A stretch of DNA of 45,216 nt. Source: Nitrospirales bacterium (GTDB lineage: Bacteria; Nitrospirota; Nitrospiria; Nitrospirales; UBA8639). Shown in pieces: positions 3,521 to 44,955 of this stretch. Under the pieces are notes generated by a model that did not search any database, was not told where the DNA came from, and saw only the letters and a list, made by a program, of their open reading frames with translations. Location of the stretch: assembly GCA_007570995.1 (NCBI GenBank), contig RKSG01000055.1, positions 1-45,216 of the forward strand. The letters run 5' to 3'. The translations under genes and the position numbers were made by a program. Numbering within the stretch: the stretch's first letter is position 1; each line of letters begins with the position of its first letter.

Positions 3521-3741
3521 TCCCCGACAGAATACGAAGCCAGCTGCACGATGGGTGTGCGAAACGTTCATCTTGAAGAGAGAACGCCCATGGTCGGTTG
3601 CTGGACATGGGAATGCACGGGGCAACGAGTCGGTTGCAGGCCTGCTTTCGCAATCTTTCACAAGCCACCCACCACTTGGCGTTGAGTCAGCGTGCGTTAC
3701 TCAAAAGCAATCCTCAGCATCTTTCTCTTCAGGGAACAGTC

Positions 3742-5850
3742 ATGACACACGGAAACATCCTCCAGGCGATACTCAAAGACAGCAATTATCATCTCGTACT
3801 GTTTGACCAACAGGAGATAGCCAATGTCATGAAGAAAGTCTCTGTGAAAGAGACCAAAATTAAAAACCCGCATTTTGTAAAATGTATTGTGCGGGACAAG
3901 GACGTGCAGTTGACACCGGAAGAAATTGTCCGCCAACTCTTCGCCACGAGACTTGTCAAGCAATATGGCTACCCTAAGGAAAGGGTGCGTTGTGAACATC
4001 CCGTTGCCTTCGGAAGGGAGACGAAAAAGGCCGACCTTGTTGTCTTTGAAAAGGATCGTCATGAAACGGTTTACATCGTGATCGAAGTCAAAAGGCCCCA
4101 ACTCAAAGAAGGCAAGGCCCAACTCCGCTCATACTGCAATGCCACAGGTGCACCGATTGGCGTATGGACGAATGGCGGGAAAGTCTCCTACTACCACAGA
4201 AAAGATCCCAACTACTTTGAAGACATTACTGATATTCCAAACAGCCAGCAGACACTCGCGGATATAGTCGGCGAGCGATTCACGCTGAAGGACCTCGTCC
4301 TCAAGGACAAACTGGCCAAGGAGCGAAAATCCCTGAAAGACATTGTCCTGGAAATGGAAGATGAAGTCCTGGCCAATGCTGGCGTGGACGTCTTCGAGGA
4401 AGTGTTCAAACTCATTTTCACGAAACTGTACGATGAGTTTTTGAGTAAGGCTGACAAAGAGGTTATCAACCATTTAGTAACGCAGGTTCTGGGGACGGCT
4501 GTGCATGACACGTTACCCGGATACAGCGAAACCCCACCCGGTTATTTGGGCGGCACGGACTATGAAGCGTTGCAAAATGCGGTAAGGGGCGTTGGAGATC
4601 ATGGCTTCAGGACATTGGAGTTCAGAAATACCGGACAGACAGACACCGAACTGAAAAAGAAAATTCAAAACCTGTTCGACAGAGCAAAAGGCGAATGGCG
4701 AGGAGTTTTTCCCGAAGGTGCTCAGTTCGAACTGGAGGACAGCCATTTGGCGATCTGTGTGTCAAGTTTGCAGGATGTCAAACTGTTCAACTCCAACCTG
4801 CTGGTTGTGGATGAAGCCTTTGAATATCTCGTCAACAAATCCGCAAAGGGCGAGAAAGGGCAATACTTCACGCCTCGTCACGTCATTGACATGTGCGTGC
4901 AGATGTTGAATCCGAAACGCGGCGAATACATGATTGATACCGCTTCTGGAAGTTGTGGGTTTCCCGTGCATACCATTTTCCAGCTCACAGGCCATCTGTT
5001 CAGCAATATGGAAGTACGACCTGAGGAAAAGGATGATGTCCTGAAAGTCTTCGGCATGGATTTTGACGAAAAAACGGTCCGTGTCGCTCGAACGCTCAAC
5101 CTGATTGCCGGCGATGGCGAAGCCAATGTTCTGCATCTGAATGCATTGGATTTTAAGCGGTGGAACGAGAAAACCGAGAAAGACACAAAATGGATCAACA
5201 CCTACGGCAGGGGCTTTCAGCGGCTCGCAAATCGGAGGGTAGTGCCAGACGAAAACAAGCAATTCAACTTTGATCTGGTGATGGCCAATCCACCTTTTGC
5301 CGGCGACATCAAGGAGAGCCGACTTTTGCATCAGTATGAACTTGGGTTCAAGGATGGCGGCAGGAAAGCACAAAATAAAGTCGGACGGGATATTCTGTTT
5401 ATCGAACGGAACCTGGACTTTCTTAAACCTGGTGGACGCATGGCCATCGTTTTGCCACAAGGCCGGCTCAACAACACTTCAGACAAACATATCCGAGCAT
5501 TTCTCACAGAACGCGCACGTATTCTGGCCATTGTCGGCTTGCATCAAAACACCTTTAAGCCTCACACCGGAACCAAAACCAGCGTTCTCTTCGTTCAAAA
5601 ATGGGATGCACAACTTTGCCCGAAAAAGGATGACTACCCCATCTTCTTTGCTGTCAGCGAGAAAGGCTGCAAAGATAACTCTGGCGATTATGTCTATCGT
5701 AAAAACGAGAACGGGCTGGATAAGTTAGATAGAAATGAACATTTGATAGTTGACCATGACCTGCATAACCACGGTGGAGAGTTACCGGATGGTATAGCAG
5801 AGGCTTTTATTGAATGGGCGAAGAGTGAAAGGCTGTCGTTTTGGAGTTAA
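3742..5850 (+). CDS. Restriction-modification polypeptide: N-terminal HsdR_N-like nuclease domain fused to an N6-adenine methyltransferase (HsdM/BcgIA-like)
   Basis: N-terminal KKADLVVFEKD...VYIVIEVKRP (PD-(D/E)xK-like), central GQYFTPRHVIDMCVQMLNP...DTASGSCGFPVH and catalytic NPPFAG. More AT-rich than its surroundings. Confidence 0.85.
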   Translation: MTHGNILQAILKDSNYHLVLFDQQEIANVMKKVSVKETKIKNPHFVKCIVRDKDVQLTPEEIVRQLFATRLVKQYGYPKERVRCEHPVAFGRETKKADLVVFEKDRHETVYIVIEVKRPQLKEGKAQLRSYCNATGAPIGVWTNGGKVSYYHRKDPNYFEDITDIPNSQQTLADIVGERFTLKDLVLKDKLAKERKSLKDIVLEMEDEVLANAGVDVFEEVFKLIFTKLYDEFLSKADKEVINHLVTQVLGTAVHDTLPGYSETPPGYLGGTDYEALQNAVRGVGDHGFRTLEFRNTGQTDTELKKKIQNLFDRAKGEWRGVFPEGAQFELEDSHLAICVSSLQDVKLFNSNLLVVDEAFEYLVNKSAKGEKGQYFTPRHVIDMCVQMLNPKRGEYMIDTASGSCGFPVHTIFQLTGHLFSNMEVRPEEKDDVLKVFGMDFDEKTVRVARTLNLIAGDGEANVLHLNALDFKRWNEKTEKDTKWINTYGRGFQRLANRRVVPDENKQFNFDLVMANPPFAGDIKESRLLHQYELGFKDGGRKAQNKVGRDILFIERNLDFLKPGGRMAIVLPQGRLNNTSDKHIRAFLTERARILAIVGLHQNTFKPHTGTKTSVLFVQKWDAQLCPKKDDYPIFFAVSEKGCKDNSGDYVYRKNENGLDKLDRNEHLIVDHDLHNHGGELPDGIAEAFIEWAKSERLSFWS

Positions 5851-22973: not shown

Positions 22974-23954
22974 TGAGAAACGGTGTTGTGGGGACGTCCC
23001 TCGATGCATTCGGGGCATGTGCCTCTTGCCGCAACGGCGAGTAAGGTCGATGTCGTGTTGACGGGAGAAGGGTGGATGAGCGGTTCGAGTGATCGGTGTA
23101 GAACCACTGAGTCTTCCCGGCGTTGGTGGGTGATGGCTTGTGCGTCGTGAGCGGGTTCCTGAGTGTGGACGCGATGACTGGCCGCTCGTGCTGGAATGTC
23201 AAAGCAGCGTCGGAATGGGCGCATGCTGGCATTGATGTGACGATTGTGATGGGAGTTCCACGGACGATGTCTTGCTTGAGGGGACCTGCGCGGCTCCACA
23301 CCGTGCGGACAATGTCCTTCATGGAGTGAGGGAAGTGATCAGGGAAAATCTCGAGAGGTATATCAGGGCTCCTGGGAGTGGGGGGGGGTCCGGAGATGTC
23401 GTTTTCTGTGTTGCGGGTGACACAAGAGGCAGGCTTGCCGCGCTGCTCCACGTTGACCGGTCGTTCATCAGGTCTCCACCAATTCCCTTTTTACTGGAAG
23501 CTTAGCCTGCCTGTTCTGGATGTTGGTTGCCGTTGGATTTTCCCGCCCTTGTCAGGAAGAACGATTTGATACGCCGCGGTCATCATGACCGAACTGGATT
23601 CTGCTTGCACGGAAATGACGGTGATGTAGCACGTGGGTGCCGGCTTGGCATGCTCCTGTTGTGTCTTCCTTCGTTCACAATCGGGTCTTGTCTTTGTTGG
23701 GGGCATAGTCACATTTTGCCTGCGGTGACTGTTCCTGCATGATTGGAAAACGCTGTATTGCCGGTTTCGCGGGATGTGGCTGGATGGCTGGTGAGAAAAC
23801 AGCAGGATGATCTTTCCAGGCGCGACGATTGGCCGGTGCTCCCCATGGCCTGATGGTGCCGGTGACGGAGAGGTTAGCCTGCAATGATTTCAGCCATCGG
23901 GTCGCGGCTTGAACAGTCTGGGACAGACTCTGGCCATGCAATTGGGGTTTCTGG

Positions 23955-24277
23955 TCCATGCTCTTCGGGGTGCAATGGGAGCCTGTGGTGCCGTTACTCC
24001 AGGCCATGACGGGAGTCGTGCTCGGGCTCAGCCCGTTTGGCACACTCAGGGCATTGTGTATGGCGGGAAACCGGATGAGGCCCTTTGTCCTGCTTGGGGG
24101 GGCCAGTATGGGGCATTGGCGGGAGCGGCCTTGGCCATTCCAGGGTATCACGTGCCTGCCACTCTCACCCTGGCGGTCAGTCTTTTTGCCGGCTATGTCC
24201 TGGGGGGCTTGCGCTTTTTGTATTTCGTCGAGGTCTTCTTTAAGATACCCGCACCGTTGCGGGCAGGTAGGTGATGG
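23955..24277 (+). pseudogene. Polysaccharide flippase (Wzx-like) C-terminal remnant with a frameshift
   Basis: MLFGVQWEPVVPLLQAMTGVVLGLSPFGTLRALCMAGNRMRPFVLLGG in one frame, continued by GALAGAALAIPGYHVPATLTLAVSLFAGYVLGGLRFLYFVEVFFKIPAPLRAG in another; the frame switch lies at a G7 run, 24096-24102. Confidence 0.55.
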
Positions 24278-24290
24278 TCAAAGCGAGTTG

Positions 24291-25186
24291 ATGAATCAAC
24301 ACATGCTGTCGAAAGTGTCAACCGTCGTTCTCACGTACAATGGGGAAATCAATCTTCCGGCATGTCTGGAGAGCCTGACGCTGTTGAATGGCGAGGTCAT
24401 TGTTCTTGATTCGGGCAGTACAGATAACACCCTGGACATGGCGGAACGCTGTGGTGCCAAAGAGTCTACCGTTATGAATCGGGAACCTGGGATCCGGGCG
24501 CGAAGAAGATCAATTGGGTACTTGACACCATTTCCCTGCAAGGCGACTGGGTCCTCCGACTTGATGCCGATGAACGGCTGCCCCCCGGGTTGGCATGTAA
24601 ACTTGCGGATCTTGCTTCTCGTGGAGAGGCGGACGGTACGGGGTTTGACATTAAGCGTCGCATGTATTTCATGGGGTACTGGATACGACATGGCGGCTGG
24701 TATCCGGTGTGACTTTTGAGACTTTGGCGGAACGGAAAAGCGTACTGCGAAGACATGATCATGGACGAGCCGATCGTTCTTTTGGAGGGCAAGGCCGGTT
24801 GGTTGAAACACGATATCATGGATTGGGATCAGAAAGATCTGACGTTTCGTGTCGGGAAGGTGAACCGGTATTCGAATACCTATGCCTGTCTGATGTCCAA
24901 CAGATCAGACGTGTCCCAGTTCGTGCTGCCAGCTTCTCTTTGGGGAGTGCAACCTGCGAGGCAGCAGTGGATCAAAGACAACGTCTATGCGAGATTTCCG
25001 AAATTTTTTCGATGCCTGATCTCTTTTCTGTGCAGTTATGTGGTGCTCCTGGGGTTTCTTGACGGCAAGGCAGGCCTTGTTTTTCATGTTCTGTATGGCT
25101 TTTGGTACCGGTTCCTTTCCGATGCAAAATTGCTGGAGATGTCACAAGGTCGTCAAGAATCCTCGGTCTTCCCATTGCCCAAATGA
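24291..25186 (+). pseudogene. Family 2 glycosyltransferase (WaaE/KdtX-like), disrupted by one frameshift and one in-frame stop
   Basis: VSTVVLTYNGEINLPACLESL...VIVLDSGSTDNTLDMAERCGAK, frame change about 24458-24466, then VYRYESGTWDPGAKKINWVLDTISLQGDWVLRLDADERLPPGLACKL...MYFMGYWIRHGGWYPV, stop (TGA 24710-24712), LLRLWRNGKAYCEDMIMDEPIVLLEGKAGWLKHDIMDWD. Confidence 0.8.
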
Positions 25187-25249
25187 GAGCGGAAGGAGCT
25201 CCTCTCTTTTTGAGATCTGCTTAATGCGCGGAGGGAATTGCATTCCGAC

Positions 25250-39078: not shown

Positions 39079-39338
39079 GTGTCCAAGCTTCGCGCGGTGT
39101 TCTCCCTGTAACCTGCGGTGGTGCACCCCGGAGTGTACAGGCTGCCCTGAATCTCCGCAATGGCAGTGGATGTGGGGGGCTGTGCACGCACGACTGCCGT
39201 TGTGTTGAGAAACGTGCGTCCCCTTCAATATAATTTTCACCTTGTGATTCCCTGCGATTTCGACTGTGGGGGGCTGGTGTGCTCCGACGGAGCCGTGGGT
39301 GGTGGTTGCCCGTTCTTCCGGGACAATGGGTCGTGGTC

Positions 39339-39836
39339 ATGATTGAGAGCGATGATTTTGTCAACGCCATACAGGATGCCGGCTTTGATTTTTTTACAGG
39401 GGTGCCCGACACGATATTAGGCGGTGTTCTCGACGTGCTGAGTCAACGCCGGGTGTATATCCCGTCGGTTCGGGAGGATGAAGCCGTGGCGATGGCAGCG
39501 GGTGCGTTTCTCGGGGGAAAAGTCCCGGTGGTGTTGATGCAAAATTCCGGTCTTGGCAATGCCTTGAACGTGCTCATGTCGCTTCATCTGATCTACAGGA
39601 TTCCGTGCCTGCTGATTATTTCCTGGCGGGGGTTTGAAGGCAACGATGCACCGGAACATCTGGTGATGGGGCACACCATGCCGCAGTTGATGGAGATAAT
39701 CCGGATTGCTCATCGAACGCTCTCCCGGGACACCATGGCCGATGATCTGCGGTGGGCCAGACAGACCGTGATGGAGCAACGTCTCCCTGTTGCGTTGTTT
39801 GTGAAAAAGGGGGTCGTGAAAACGATCCAGCCGTGA
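39339..39836 (+). CDS. Phosphonopyruvate/sulfopyruvate decarboxylase, alpha (N-terminal TPP) subunit
   Basis: FFTGVPDTILGGVLDVL; VREDEAVAMAAGAFLGGKVPVVLMQNSGLGNALNVLMSLHLIYRIPCLLIISWRG. Confidence 0.82.
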   Translation: MIESDDFVNAIQDAGFDFFTGVPDTILGGVLDVLSQRRVYIPSVREDEAVAMAAGAFLGGKVPVVLMQNSGLGNALNVLMSLHLIYRIPCLLIISWRGFEGNDAPEHLVMGHTMPQLMEIIRIAHRTLSRDTMADDLRWARQTVMEQRLPVALFVKKGVVKTIQP

Positions 39837-39875: not shown

Positions 39876-40487
39876 ATGCGACCTGAAGAAGGCGTGATGC
39901 AGAGTAGAGCCCAGGCGATGCAGGCACTCTTTGAAGTGCTGTCCGACCAGCCCGTGATTATTTGCAACGGGTTCCCGTCACGGGAAGCCCACAAGATCCG
40001 CGACCGCGCCGGCAATTTTTACATGATTGGGTCAATGGGTGTCGCGGCTTCCATCGGACTGGGTCTTGCCTGTGCCCGACCGGACCGACGAGTGGTGGTG
40101 TTTGACGGCGATGGGAATGTCCTCATGGGTATGGGTACGTTGGCCACGATCGGGGCCCTGCAACCCAGGAACCTGACGCATGTGGTGTTTGACAACGAAG
40201 TCTACGGGACCACCGGCAATCAGCCATCGTATTCACGGGTGGTTCGACTGGACCAGGTGGCGAAGGCAGCCGGGTATGCCACGGTCGAGCGTGTGTGGGA
40301 ACGGGAAGATATTGTGTATGAATTTACGGACATGCTGAACAGCGATGGCCCGAATTTTCTGCTGATCAAGGTCAATGAGCAGATAGAGGACGTGGACCGA
40401 GTGGCGCTGGATCCGTCCGAGATGACAACGCGTTTTCGCGTTGCTGTGGATGCGGACCAGCCTGTGAGATCACGGGAGAAAGGCTGA
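39876..40487 (+). CDS. Phosphonopyruvate/sulfopyruvate decarboxylase, beta (TPP-binding C-terminal) subunit
   Basis: GFPSREAHKIRDRAGNFYMIGSMGVAASIGLGLACARPDRRVVVFDGDGNVLMGMGTLATIGAL; TPP motif GDGN. Confidence 0.82.
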   Translation: MRPEEGVMQSRAQAMQALFEVLSDQPVIICNGFPSREAHKIRDRAGNFYMIGSMGVAASIGLGLACARPDRRVVVFDGDGNVLMGMGTLATIGALQPRNLTHVVFDNEVYGTTGNQPSYSRVVRLDQVAKAAGYATVERVWEREDIVYEFTDMLNSDGPNFLLIKVNEQIEDVDRVALDPSEMTTRFRVAVDADQPVRSREKG

Positions 40488-40491
40488 AGGA

Positions 40492-41592
40492 ATGCGTACG
40501 ATCTTGCTCAATCCCGGTCCGGTCAACGTGTCCGATCGTGTCCGCAATGCCTTGATGGGACCGGATCTCTGTCATCGGGAATCCGAATGTGTGGAGTTGT
40601 GTGACCGTATTCGTCGCAAACTGCTTGAAGCCTTTGTGCCGGGCGCGGAGTCGGATTACACCGCGATTCTGTTGACCGGGTCTGGCACCGCGGCGGTCGA
40701 GGCGTCGATCATGTCATGCCTGCCTGCGGGGAAGCGTCTCGTGCATGTCAACAACGGCGTGTACGGGGAACGGATTTCTTCCATCGTGGGGACACAACGC
40801 TTGGGGATTGCCGAAATCAAATGTGATTGGGTCACTCCGCCGGACCCGGAGACCATTCTGAAGTCACTGAAGCAGCAGCCGGCGGTGCATGCCGTGGCCA
40901 TGGTACATCATGAAACGACCCTGGGTTTGATCAACCCCGTCCATGAAATCGCCGAACACGTTGACAGCCGTGGGTGTGTCTTTATTCTGGATTCGGTCAG
41001 TGGATTAGGCGGGGAAGCCTTGGATATTGCGGGTCAGCATATGTACATGGTCGCCGGGACCGCGGGGAAATGCATTCAAGGATTTCCAGGGGTCTCATTC
41101 GTGCTGGTCCGAAAAGGTTTTATGGAAAATGTTGTGAAGTATCCCAGACGTTCCTGGTATTTGAGCCTGGCCAATTATTACGAAGCGCAGGAGCGGGGCA
41201 GTATGCCCTTTACCCCGGCCGTCCAGGTGTATGCCGCCTTTGATGAGGCCTTGTCCGAACTCCTCGAAGAAGGCGTGCATAATCGTATGAAGCGGTATAG
41301 ACGGCTGGCCACGCTGATTCGTGAACGCATGGAGTCTCTTGGGGTGCGGGCCGTGTTGCCGGCCAGTCTTCAGTCGAATTCGTTGACAGCTTTTTATATG
41401 CCGGAAGGTCTGCCCTATACCATCCTGCATGATCGTCTGAAAGATCGCGGCTACGTTATCTATGCCGGCCAGGGCCGTTTCGAGTCGAAGATTTTCCGTG
41501 TGGCACATATGGGCGCCTTGCAGGAACACCACATTGAAGGTTTTCTGGGGGCCTTTGAAGAGGTCGTGCGACACGAAACCGGTGGCGTATGA
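40492..41592 (+). CDS. 2-aminoethylphosphonate aminotransferase-like class V PLP enzyme (PhnW-like)
   Basis: ILLNPGPVNVSDRVRNAL; AILLTGSGTAAVEASIMSCLPAGKRLVHVNNGVYGER; HHETTLGLINPVHEIAE; AGTAGKCIQGFPGVSFVLVRK. Confidence 0.82.
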   Translation: MRTILLNPGPVNVSDRVRNALMGPDLCHRESECVELCDRIRRKLLEAFVPGAESDYTAILLTGSGTAAVEASIMSCLPAGKRLVHVNNGVYGERISSIVGTQRLGIAEIKCDWVTPPDPETILKSLKQQPAVHAVAMVHHETTLGLINPVHEIAEHVDSRGCVFILDSVSGLGGEALDIAGQHMYMVAGTAGKCIQGFPGVSFVLVRKGFMENVVKYPRRSWYLSLANYYEAQERGSMPFTPAVQVYAAFDEALSELLEEGVHNRMKRYRRLATLIRERMESLGVRAVLPASLQSNSLTAFYMPEGLPYTILHDRLKDRGYVIYAGQGRFESKIFRVAHMGALQEHHIEGFLGAFEEVVRHETGGV

Positions 41593-42335
41593 AGGCGGTC
41601 ATGTTGGCGGCGGGGGTGGGGAGGCGACTGCACGTCCTGACTCAGCATCGCCCCAAGTGCCTGATTGAAATCGGGGGCCGGTCGTTGCTGTATCGCTGTT
41701 TCGATGCCCTGCGTCAGTATGACGTGACCTGCGTCTGTCTGGTGATTGGCTACAAACGGGAATTGATTCGTGAAGCGGTGGCCGCCTATCCCTTCCCACT
41801 GGATGTGACATGCCTGGTCAATGCCGAGTTTGAACGCGGGAGTATTGGCTCTCTGTGGATGGCCCGGCAAGCACTGGATGATGACGCGGTGATCATGGAT
41901 GCCGATCTCCTGTTTCACCCTGCTCTCCTTGACCGGTTACTCTCTTCTCCGTTTCGCAATGCCTTGTTGGTGGATGAGACCGTGATGCAACAGACGGAAG
42001 AATGTATGGTCGCGGTGCGAGGGGAGCAGGTGGTGGCGTTGTCCAAGCAGATTCCGGAGGGCTATGACCGGATTGGCGAAGGCGTGGGGATGCTCCGCGT
42101 GGACTGTGCTGCTGTGCCGGAGTTGTTTCGGTCGGTGGGGGCGTGTGTGAATCGTGGCCTTCTGGATCTTGAATATGAAGATGCTCTGGAAGGGTTCTTT
42201 CGTGAGGTTCAGGTCGGTGTTGAGAAAATTGGGGGACTGCCCTGGATTGAAATTGATTTCCCGGAAGATGTTGAACGGGCGCAAACGCATATTTTGCCCT
42301 TGTTGGGAGAGGCGAACGACTGTGGTGGGACGTAA
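41589..42335 (+). CDS. Sugar/choline/AEP-type nucleotidyltransferase (PntC/LicC-like cytidylyltransferase candidate)
   Basis: MKAVMLAAGVGRRLHVLTQHRPKCLIEIGGRSLLYRCFDAL; ERGSIGSLWMARQALDDDAVIMDADLLFHPALLDRLL; ATGA overlap with the PhnW-like stop codon. Confidence 0.78.
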   Translation: MKAVMLAAGVGRRLHVLTQHRPKCLIEIGGRSLLYRCFDALRQYDVTCVCLVIGYKRELIREAVAAYPFPLDVTCLVNAEFERGSIGSLWMARQALDDDAVIMDADLLFHPALLDRLLSSPFRNALLVDETVMQQTEECMVAVRGEQVVALSKQIPEGYDRIGEGVGMLRVDCAAVPELFRSVGACVNRGLLDLEYEDALEGFFREVQVGVEKIGGLPWIEIDFPEDVERAQTHILPLLGEANDCGGT

Positions 42336-42376: not shown

Positions 42377-43849
42377 GTGGATGGCACCCTCAAGCAATCT
42401 GAAATCAGCACGGTTGACACAGCCATTCTCCTGGCTTCGTCAGGCGTGTTTGATAGCGCGGCGGCTGAGCGATCCCCCGTCGGGGCGCTGACATGTGTTG
42501 GCGGCATGACGTTGTTTCAACGAACCCTCTGCACGCTTCAGCGTGGCGGGATTGCACACGTGCTGATTCTTGTGGGCGAGGAGGAGCGAGCGCTTCGTTC
42601 GTTGGTTCACGGTGATGATCGTCTCCGGATGGTCCTACGCTGGCTTTCTGTTCGCGAGTTTCCTCCGTTGCATGCTCAGACATGGGAGGCATTGACGGGT
42701 GAGATGAATGGCGCGTGTCTTATTCTTGGTTGTCACATCGTCTTTTTCCCGTCGTTGATTGTCTCTCTCAGGAAAGAAGGGCGAACAGGCCATGCCGTTG
42801 TGCCCATCGGGCAACCGGGTGACCGGGGGGACGCCCATCATGGCCGACGGTGGCGGTTTGATTTTCATCGGGACGGGCAGCCCCCGCGAATGACCGTTGC
42901 CGACCGGGGAGCTGCAGTCTTGGATTCCATGGCAGAGGAGGCCAGTGGGCTGGCATCCGCCGTTGATCTGGTCGTCTTGCCAGTTCGGTTCTTCAGGACA
43001 TCAGGGAGATGGGGCCGGTCGGCAACGGGAGCCATGGACCCGATCCGGTTAGCGTTGGAGCGGGCTGCACTGGAAGGGGCGGTGCGTGTGTTATCCCTTG
43101 CCCCCCATGGGTATCAGGATGTCCGTGAGACTGACGGGCCACGGAATGCAGAGCGCATGTTGTTCCAGGCGCTGCAAGTCGTGCAAGGGAGCCTGGATGG
43201 GGTGATGGATCGCTATGTCAATCGGAAGCTCTCCAGGTTGTGCAGCCGATTCTTTCTTCGCTTGCGCTGTCCGCCCACTGTCATTACCGTGCTGTCGCTG
43301 ATGGTTGGCCTCACAGGCGCGGCCTGTTTTGCCATGGGTTCGTACTGGCTGGATATTCTGGGGGCTGTGCTGTTTCAGGTTGCGGTGATTTTCGATTGTT
43401 GCGATGGAGAAGTGGCGCGCCTGACCTTTGCGGAATCCCGGGTTGGTCAGGTGCTGGACATCGTGGCGGACAATATTGTTCATATGGCGATCTTTGCCGG
43501 AGTGGCTTGGGGCGTGGCGCAGAACAGTCTCTGGCAATCGAGCTCCCTCTCGCTGATTGTCGGGGCTGTTGCCATTGTCTCTACCGGGGTAGCGTTGTGG
43601 TGTGTGCAACGGGTCAAGTCTCTCAAAGCGCAATCCAGGTCCTGGCAGTCTCTGAGTCTCACCCTTCGATCCCGCGTTGATGGGATTCTGGAACGCGTGG
43701 CCAACCGTGATTTTTCTGTTGTGGTGGCGGTGTGTGCCTGTTTGGGAATCCTGCCCTGGTTTTTATGGCTTGGGGCCGTGGGGGCAAGCGTGTTTGCCGT
43801 ACTGATGGCGTGGAACCTCCGTCAGGCATTGCGGTCTCGTCAATCCTGA
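42377..43849 (+). CDS. Fusion protein: degenerate nucleotidyltransferase-like N-terminus plus CDP-alcohol phosphotransferase
   Basis: C-terminal motif DGEVARLTFAESRVGQVLDIVAD matches DGx2ARx8Gx3Dx3D (43403-43471) with several TM helices; N-terminus VDTAILLASSGVFDS...VGGMTLFQRTLCTLQRGGIAHVLILVGEEE. Confidence 0.85.
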   Translation: MDGTLKQSEISTVDTAILLASSGVFDSAAAERSPVGALTCVGGMTLFQRTLCTLQRGGIAHVLILVGEEERALRSLVHGDDRLRMVLRWLSVREFPPLHAQTWEALTGEMNGACLILGCHIVFFPSLIVSLRKEGRTGHAVVPIGQPGDRGDAHHGRRWRFDFHRDGQPPRMTVADRGAAVLDSMAEEASGLASAVDLVVLPVRFFRTSGRWGRSATGAMDPIRLALERAALEGAVRVLSLAPHGYQDVRETDGPRNAERMLFQALQVVQGSLDGVMDRYVNRKLSRLCSRFFLRLRCPPTVITVLSLMVGLTGAACFAMGSYWLDILGAVLFQVAVIFDCCDGEVARLTFAESRVGQVLDIVADNIVHMAIFAGVAWGVAQNSLWQSSSLSLIVGAVAIVSTGVALWCVQRVKSLKAQSRSWQSLSLTLRSRVDGILERVANRDFSVVVAVCACLGILPWFLWLGAVGASVFAVLMAWNLRQALRSRQS

Positions 43850-43965: not shown

Positions 43966-44955
43966 ATGATCAGAATCGTGTTCCTTGTATTCGGTCTTGT
44001 TGTACTGGGCGGACTGCTCTGGCATATCGGTCCGTTACACATCATGAGGACGGCTGAACAGATTGGCTTTATCCCGTTCTGCATTATTCTTACCCCTTTT
44101 CTGGTGGTGTACAGTCTCGATACCTATGGATGGTGGCTGACGCTGGGCCCCTGGGCAGGGCGAGTCGGGTTTATCCGCTTGTTCATGGTAAGAATGTCCG
44201 GCGAGGCTATTAACGTGACGACCCCGACCTCCGTGCTTGGCGGCGAACCTCTGAAGGCCTATCTGCTGACGCGATATGAGGTTCCCATGGTCGATGGACT
44301 GGCGTCCATGGTGATAACCAAGACCATCATGGTCATGGCACAGATTGTCTTCATGTTGTTGGGGATTGGCCTTCTGTGGTGGTTCGTTGGGGGTGGGATG
44401 TACAACGTCCTGGCTGCATTGGTCAGTGTGGGTCTGCTCTCGTTTGTCGTTTTCCTGTTCGTGATTATCCAGCGATATGGCATCGGGATGGGGCTGTGCA
44501 CCTTGGCTGAAACGTGTCGGATTCGATCTCGATGGCTTGTGGCCTGGCGGCCACAGTTGTTGGAGTTGGACCAGGCCGTGCGCAATTTTTACCGGCATCG
44601 CAGGCAGACGTTTGTCCTGTCCCTTGGCGTGCACTTTGTCGCATGGTTGACGGAAATGTTCGAAGTCTATGCGATTTTGTACTTCCTTGGTGCGGAAACC
44701 GGATGGCTGCAGTCTTTGTCCATTGCCGCAATCGCTGTCCTGATCAAGGGCGCGATGTCAGTGATTCCAGGTGGTTTGGGTGCGCAGGAAGGCGGTTATC
44801 TTTTTTTGCTGATGGGACTGGGATATGGTGAGATGACAGGGATCACCTTTGCCCTCATTCGTCGAATCCGCGAAATCATCTGGATCCTGGTTGGGCTGGT
44901 CTTTCTGGCCGTCCTGAGGAGCAAGCGCACGCGTGCCGCCCCGGCGTCGGGGTGA
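43966..44955 (+). CDS. Lysylphosphatidylglycerol synthase TM-region/flippase-like (UPF0104) membrane protein
   Basis: Polytopic 329 aa; INVTTPTSVLGGEPLKAYLLTRYEVP; SVIPGGLGAQEGGYLFLLMGLG. Confidence 0.82.
   Translation: MIRIVFLVFGLVVLGGLLWHIGPLHIMRTAEQIGFIPFCIILTPFLVVYSLDTYGWWLTLGPWAGRVGFIRLFMVRMSGEAINVTTPTSVLGGEPLKAYLLTRYEVPMVDGLASMVITKTIMVMAQIVFMLLGIGLLWWFVGGGMYNVLAALVSVGLLSFVVFLFVIIQRYGIGMGLCTLAETCRIRSRWLVAWRPQLLELDQAVRNFYRHRRQTFVLSLGVHFVAWLTEMFEVYAILYFLGAETGWLQSLSIAAIAVLIKGAMSVIPGGLGAQEGGYLFLLMGLGYGEMTGITFALIRRIREIIWILVGLVFLAVLRSKRTRAAPASG

What the first reader, a model, noticed from the sequence alone, without database searches (positions are those of the whole stretch)
42377..43849. 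CDP-alcohol phosphotransferase fused to a probably inactive nucleotidyltransferase domain
The C-terminal half carries an intact DGx2ARx8Gx3Dx3D motif. The N-terminal half has a NTase-like layout (VGGMTLFQRTL..LQRGGI) but lacks the GxGxRL...PK signature (it reads LLASSGVFDSAAAERSPVGAL). An intact NTase (LAAGVGRRL...RPK) lies immediately upstream. This resembles the architecture of archaeal IPCT-DIPPS fusions, but with activation apparently moved to the separate upstream protein.
Basis: partly seen in the sequence, partly recalled or inferred. Interest (0 to 1): 0.6.

Follow-up and report, generated by a model that had tools for sequence, protein, structure and literature searches.

The report
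Retired activating domain on phosphonate-transfer enzyme
In Nitrospira-type bacteria, a membrane enzyme that probably attaches the phosphonate 2-aminoethylphosphonate to a membrane molecule carries a front half that looks like its own activating enzyme but has lost the catalytic residues, while the next-door gene supplies the working copy; in four sister species the working copy has been spliced in where the dead half used to be.

Summary
ORF 42377-43849 is an intact class I CDP-alcohol phosphotransferase (CAP) whose N-terminal ~250 residues have the nucleotidyltransferase (NTase) fold. The five key catalytic NTase positions are lost in all 17 degenerate-domain relatives compared. The domain is still under purifying selection (median dN/dS 0.16, against 0.24 for the CAP half), so it is a retained pseudo-NTase, not a decaying one.

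The upstream NTase (41589-42335) is best matched by PntC, the 2-aminoethylphosphonate (AEP) cytidylyltransferase. It lies in a six-gene operon (PpdA-PpdB-AEP transaminase-PntC-this gene-flippase-like) kept in order in 67 of 80 named contigs. PEP mutase is present elsewhere in the genome.

In four congeneric genomes an in-frame deletion joins intact PntC directly to the CAP half and removes the pseudo-NTase, recreating an IPCT-DIPPS-like bifunctional enzyme.

Best reading: PntC makes CMP-AEP and the CAP transfers AEP to an alcohol acceptor, probably a lipid; the pseudo-NTase is a non-catalytic scaffold or docking domain. Reader 1's idea that activation moved to the separate upstream protein is supported; the substrate is probably AEP, not inositol phosphate. 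The nearest known case is A. fulgidus AF2299. New variant of a known kind; nothing is biochemically tested.

The parts
42377..43849 (+). dNT-CAP: pseudo-nucleotidyltransferase fused to a class I CDP-alcohol phosphotransferase, 490 aa
42410..43126 (+). degenerate NTase domain (about residues 12-250): LASSGVF replaces LAAGxGxRL, LGCH replaces MDAD, DVR replaces EID/DVD
   Evidence: fold
43394..43471 (+). CDP-alcohol phosphotransferase motif DxxDGxxAR(x8)GxxxDxxxD, intact (D340-D365)
   Evidence: sequence; invariant or nearly invariant in A3; PF01066
43184..43846 (+). membrane catalytic domain (about residues 270-490), helical
   Evidence: (helices 276-489)
41589..42335 (+). intact PntC-like cytidylyltransferase, 4-bp overlap with the transaminase gene
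   Evidence: best PDB 6pd1, profile E 4e-27; 4-bp overlap in 59 loci
40492..41592 (+). AEP aminotransferase (PhnW/AepZ-type)
   Evidence: TIGR03301 E 8e-100 (334.6 bits, just under the cut-off of 360.8)
39876..40487 (+). phosphonopyruvate decarboxylase, beta/C-terminal half (PpdB)
   Evidence: TIGR03297 E 3e-51, TIGR03846 E 3e-56, both under their cut-offs
39279..39836 (+). phosphonopyruvate decarboxylase, alpha/N-terminal half (PpdA); real start is probably the internal ATG at 39339
   Evidence: TIGR03297 E 3e-37; homologs start at about residue 19-21
43966..44955 (+). flippase-like membrane protein (LPG_synthase_TM, HpnL/TIGR00374)
   Evidence: PF03706 E 3e-33; TIGR03476 E 7e-43; next to the CAP gene in the 80-locus survey

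Best explanation
The gene encodes the transfer step of a phosphonate pathway. PEP mutase makes phosphonopyruvate, PpdA/PpdB decarboxylate it, the PhnW-type enzyme makes 2-aminoethylphosphonate (AEP), and the neighbouring PntC-like enzyme makes CMP-AEP. The CAP half of the 42377-43849 product then displaces CMP and puts the AEP phosphonyl group on an alcohol acceptor, most likely a membrane lipid such as diacylglycerol, and the downstream flippase-like protein may move the product. The N-terminal half is a pseudo-NTase, probably descended from an IPCT-type activating domain. It no longer activates anything and is kept as the cytosolic scaffold of the CAP, possibly also as a dock for PntC. Shown by sequence: domain identities, loss of catalytic residues, purifying selection, operon conservation, natural PntC-CAP fusions. 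Inferred: substrate AEP, lipid acceptor, docking, flipping.
For: Pathway: PEP mutase with EDKCFPKTNS over the curated cut-off in the same genome; Ppd and transaminase hits; PntC (6pd1) is the best solved relative of the upstream NTase, and Tde1415 is PntC fused to an AEP transaminase (PMC6697681), here two overlapping genes. The PntC orthologue overlaps PepM by 4 bp in G014 and G034; a short dNT-CAP sits directly beside PepM in G228. Co-occurrence: by my tally, in genomes at least 96% complete all 83 with this gene have strong PepM and PntC hits, and the 5 without it (G057, G068, G089, G268, G335; three genera) have neither. Pseudo-NTase: 0 of 17 keep the key catalytic residues; dN/dS 0.16. 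Coupling: PntC-CAP fusions in four genomes, one group with 96/90 support nested inside the dNT-CAP clade, with the junction at a CCGGYTGG direct repeat.
Against: No biochemistry. The acceptor is not identified; CAPs that use lipid acceptors typically have extra C-terminal TM helices (PMC4634129), and this one does not appear to, which argues against diacylglycerol. PepM carries a second NTase domain that could be the AEP activator. The fusions also show the pseudo-NTase can be lost, so docking may not be needed. The fused model leaves domain packing open (pTM 0.64; TM to 4mnd 0.46). In G010 the CAP gene is unlinked from PntC.
Confidence: 0.6

Rival explanations
1. The N-terminal domain is only a structural spacer that stabilises the membrane CAP, as in AF2299. 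It never touches PntC, and CMP-AEP simply diffuses between the two enzymes.
For: AF2299 has a cytidylyltransferase-like domain that packs on the TM half and improved expression of fused PIP synthases (PMC4634129); other Nitrospirota CAPs have still shorter degenerate N-termini; CAP and PntC genes are unlinked in G010.
Against: Where the domain was lost it was replaced by PntC itself and not by nothing; the first part of the domain is at least as constrained as the CAP half, with invariant residues such as R88, W89, E94, P96 and W103.
Confidence: 0.4
2. The N-terminal domain is an active but divergent NTase with an alternative nucleotide loop (LASSGVF).
For: The replacement loop is itself conserved (T15, A16, F25 and G43).
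Against: Glycine-rich loop, loop Arg, PK lysine and both metal-binding Asp are missing in 17 of 17; a full-length NTase with all of them is encoded next door.
Confidence: 0.04
3. The cluster acts on another donor, such as inositol phosphate as in IPCT-DIPPS or a sulfonate made by a sulfopyruvate decarboxylase pair, and AEP is a misreading.
For: The CAP is closest to IPCT-DIPPS; PpdB scores slightly better for sulfopyruvate decarboxylase beta than for phosphonopyruvate decarboxylase.
Against: PEP mutase co-occurs with the gene and lies beside PntC or the CAP operon in several genomes; the transaminase is PhnW/AepZ-type; PntC is the top solved relative and the MEYE motif of Tde-PntC is kept.
Confidence: 0.1
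4. The AEP activator is the NTase domain fused to PEP mutase, and the 41589 enzyme activates something else for the CAP.
For: PepM-NT fusions are common, and NTase enrichment in phosphonate clusters is published (PMC6697681); the window's genome has one.
Against: The characterised Tde PntC is the transaminase-linked one, and in the three clusters of that paper a PepM-fused NTase coexists with a separate PntC (PMC6697681).
Confidence: 0.15

Closest known systems
AF2299 of Archaeoglobus fulgidus (PDB 4o6m, 4o6n, 4q7c)
   Same: Class I CDP-alcohol phosphotransferase with an N-terminal cytidylyltransferase-like domain; fold match TM 0.72-0.77 by target length; best sequence hit in PDB, profile E 7e-29. 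The printed AF2299 stretch reads IILEP where active NTases have the metal Asp (alignment there is weak).
   Different: About 120 residues shorter; donor CDP-glycerol (PMC4634129); no phosphonate context and no partner NTase named in the sources read.
Bifunctional IPCT-DIPPS (PDB 4mnd; NF041135)
   Same: Same domain order and best overall fold match.
   Different: Its NTase half is active and its substrates are inositol phosphates; here the key catalytic residues are lost and the score is far under the family cut-off (82 of 580 bits).
PntC, AEP cytidylyltransferase (Tde1415, PDB 6pd1/6pd2; Rice et al. 2019, PMC6697681)
   Same: Closest solved relative of the upstream NTase, also paired with an AEP transaminase.
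   Different: Separate gene here; in four sister species fused to the CAP instead of to the transaminase.
Bacteroidetes NTP transferase + CDP-alcohol phosphatidyltransferase cluster (PMC9246714)
   Same: Same Kennedy-like logic of a separate NTase and a CAP, proposed there for CDP-inositol and diacylglycerol.
   Different: Inositol, not phosphonate; no pseudo-NTase domain mentioned in the passages read.

Membership tests
Class I CDP-alcohol phosphotransferase | DxxDGxxAR(x8)GxxxDxxxD motif | tested here: met
   sequence of residues 340-365; invariant or nearly so in 46 relatives; PF01066 46/46
Class I CDP-alcohol phosphotransferase | membrane helical catalytic fold | tested here: met
IPCT-DIPPS bifunctional enzyme | N-terminal NTase fold followed by CAP | tested here: met
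   4mnd TM 0.77 by target length, E 1e-14
IPCT-DIPPS bifunctional enzyme | active NTase residues (GxGxR loop, PK lysine, metal Asp pair) | tested here: not met
   0 of 17 retain them; present in 6 of 6 IPCT-type relatives from the phylum
IPCT-DIPPS bifunctional enzyme | curated NF041135 cut-off | tested here: not met
   82.4 of 580 bits
AF2299-type CAP with degenerate cytidylyltransferase-like domain | degenerate N-terminal NTase-like domain packed on a CAP | tested here: met
AF2299-type CAP with degenerate cytidylyltransferase-like domain | CDP-glycerol as donor | not testable with these tools
   needs an enzyme assay
PntC (product of 41589-42335) | closest to PntC among solved NTases, with intact NTase signature | tested here: met
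   MEYE motif shared with Tde-PntC in the alignment
PntC (product of 41589-42335) | preference for AEP over phosphocholine | not testable with these tools
   equivalent of Tde Glu196 is kept but Glu104 is Asp, as in LicC
PEP-mutase phosphonate pathway | PEP mutase with EDKxxxxxNS in the genome | tested here: met
   TIGR02320 382 bits, over cut-off; EDKCFPKTNS

The most novel reading that the evidence does not exclude
The pseudo-NTase and PntC form an active/inactive NTase pair on the membrane, like eukaryotic GMPPA/GMPPB, that hands CMP-AEP directly to the CAP active site. The four fusions are natural short-circuits of that docking, so that one phylum shows the bifunctional enzyme, the split enzyme with a retained pseudo-domain, and the re-fused enzyme.
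Probability: 0.3. Interest if true: 0.68.

Novelty: new variant of a known kind. Interest (0 to 1): 0.52.

Why it matters
PntC enzymes make CMP-AEP, but the steps after it are little known (PMC6697681 describes the tailoring steps as enigmatic). Here a membrane transferase sits next to PntC in a conserved operon and is physically fused to PntC in four species, which makes it a strong, testable candidate for the transfer step in nitrite-oxidising Nitrospira and relatives. It is also a clean example of a pseudoenzyme domain kept under selection across a bacterial order and then exchanged for its active relative by what looks like a single deletion.

Tried and rejected
Active divergent NTase: made unlikely. 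Assembly error for the fusion: rejected, since four genomes with different sequences, each with both operon flanks present, share the junction. Decaying domain: rejected by dN/dS. Copy on known plasmids: no DNA match in the plasmid collection. First alignment for the fused model (A4) misplaced the CAP rows and was discarded for A5. The original AF2299 and IPCT-DIPPS papers are not in the library, so statements on them rest on PMC4634129 and PDB sequences. A promoter/terminator scan was not above the shuffles. A PntC-dNT complex could not be modelled with these tools.

Full report
What is there. The ORF at 42377-43849 encodes 490 aa. Its C-terminal half is a class I CDP-alcohol phosphotransferase (PF01066, E 8e-11) with the complete DxxDGxxAR(x8)GxxxDxxxD motif. 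Its N-terminal half has no significant Pfam match in this protein, but 20 of 46 relatives hit the NTase family PF12804 weakly, best E 6e-4. A profile of the family aligns with a profile of the upstream NTase at E 4e-6. The AlphaFold model is confident (pLDDT 87, pTM 0.87). Foldseek gives IPCT-DIPPS 4mnd first (E 1e-14, TM 0.77 by target length), then AF2299, then RmlA-type NTases over the N-terminal half.

The signature really is lost. In a joint alignment of 17 degenerate domains, 6 IPCT-type domains, 4 fused PntC-CAP proteins and 6 PntC proteins, positions equivalent to PntC G11, R13, K23, D106 and D223 are intact in all 16 intact NTases and in none of the 17 degenerate domains. G11 is F in 16 of 17 and D223 is R in 15 of 17. 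The loss is shared by the whole order. The domain is not decaying: over 43 close pairs the median dN/dS is 0.16 for residues 12-145, 0.19 for 146-252 and 0.24 for the CAP half, and residues such as R88, W89, E94, P96 and W103 are invariant in 46 proteins.

Where it sits. The window is from a Nitrospirales genome, judged by its relatives: nearly all of the 80 best relatives in genome contigs are titled Nitrospirota, Nitrospirales or Nitrospira. The gene order PpdA, PpdB, AEP transaminase, PntC, dNT-CAP, flippase-like protein is kept in 67 of 80 loci; many of the exceptions are short contigs. The transaminase and PntC genes overlap by 4 bp in 59 loci. The same operon with a degenerate N-terminal domain occurs outside the order in G214 (L139). 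PEP mutase is in the same genome with the EDKxxxxxNS motif and its own fused NTase. In genomes at least 96% complete, by my tally, 83 of 83 genomes with the gene have strong PepM and PntC hits, and 0 of 5 without it do. Those five fall in three genera, so the number of independent losses is small. Below that completeness there are exceptions either way, for example G052 with PepM but no CAP.

What the partner is. The upstream NTase is closest among solved structures to Tde1415 (6pd1), profile E 4e-27, ahead of LicC. Tde1415 is PntC fused to an AEP transaminase, and it prefers AEP over phosphocholine (PMC6697681). Here the same two activities are overlapping neighbouring genes. In G014 and G034 the PntC orthologue overlaps the PepM gene by 4 bp instead. 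This makes AEP the most likely substrate, but it is an inference.

The natural experiment. In G001, G008, G011 and G013, all in the window's genus, one ORF of 473-478 aa at the same place in the operon holds intact PntC (LAAGRGRRL...RPK) joined in frame to the CAP half; the degenerate domain is gone. A named copy is L113 (Nitrospira sp. RHO3_bin_20). On the CAP tree these four form one group (96/90) inside the dNT-CAP clade, so the separate arrangement is most simply the older one in this genus and the fusion derived. The DNA at the junction fits one deletion between CCGGYTGG repeats at the 3' end of pntC and at codon ~228 of the dNT-CAP gene, followed by trimming of the leftover linker. The fused protein is predicted to keep both folds (pLDDT 90.7), with its N-terminal half closest to PntC 6pd2, but the placing of the two domains is not settled (pTM 0.64).

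Mechanism. Best supported: PntC makes CMP-AEP and the CAP transfers AEP to an alcohol, releasing CMP. The pseudo-NTase is a retained cytosolic scaffold, possibly a dock for PntC. I put catalytic death of the N-terminal domain above 0.9, AEP as substrate near 0.8, PntC as donor for this CAP near 0.8, a lipid acceptor near 0.5, and direct docking near 0.3-0.4. The flippase-like neighbour fits a lipid product. Against a bulky lipid acceptor, CAPs with lipid acceptors typically have extra C-terminal helices (PMC4634129). The acceptor region also differs from IPCT-type enzymes: SYTATKYD and GRDTR in those, SFWLVxRA and NRDFS or SRDFS here, so inositol phosphate is unlikely.

Known versus new. A cytidylyltransferase-like domain on a CAP is known from AF2299; bifunctional IPCT-DIPPS and PntC are known; NTase plus CAP as a Kennedy-like pair is proposed in Bacteroidetes (PMC9246714). 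A search for papers joining PEP mutase and CDP-alcohol phosphatidyltransferase found two papers, neither on this pairing by title and abstract, and a search on Nitrospira and phosphonate biosynthesis found nothing of this kind; the library holds only open-licence papers. New here, as far as I can tell, are the order-wide phosphonate operon with a conserved pseudo-NTase and its replacement by the active NTase in four species.

Noticed in passing
window 22974-25237: No intact long gene between the KpsF/KdsD-like gene and the MraY/WecA-like gene; ORF 23958-24719 holds only the first 50 positions of a family 2 glycosyltransferase (PF00535) with other pieces apparently in shifted frames, so it looks like decayed glycan genes.
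   Followed up: partly
L022 5916-7712 (-), same genome contig C106: PEP mutase is fused to a second NTase domain with a slightly unusual loop (LAASRGDELGELTEDKPK), so one pathway has two intact-looking NTases and one degenerate one.
   Followed up: partly
L155 4506-8583 (G250): A second copy of the transaminase-PntC-dNT-CAP-flippase stretch broken into short frames: a pseudogene copy beside an intact operon (L154).
   Followed up: no
L140 485-4432 (G228, same phylum): A much shorter degenerate-N CAP (381 aa) directly next to a PEP mutase-NTase gene and a fused Ppd gene, an independent link of such CAPs to phosphonates.
   Followed up: partly
   Followed up: no
window 3598-5850: DNA N-6 methylase (N6_Mtase, type I-like) preceded in the same protein by an HsdR N-terminal nuclease-like domain (HSDR_N_2).
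   Followed up: partly
L049: Record titled Nitrospinota groups inside the Nitrospirales family for this gene; possibly a mislabelled bin.
   Followed up: no
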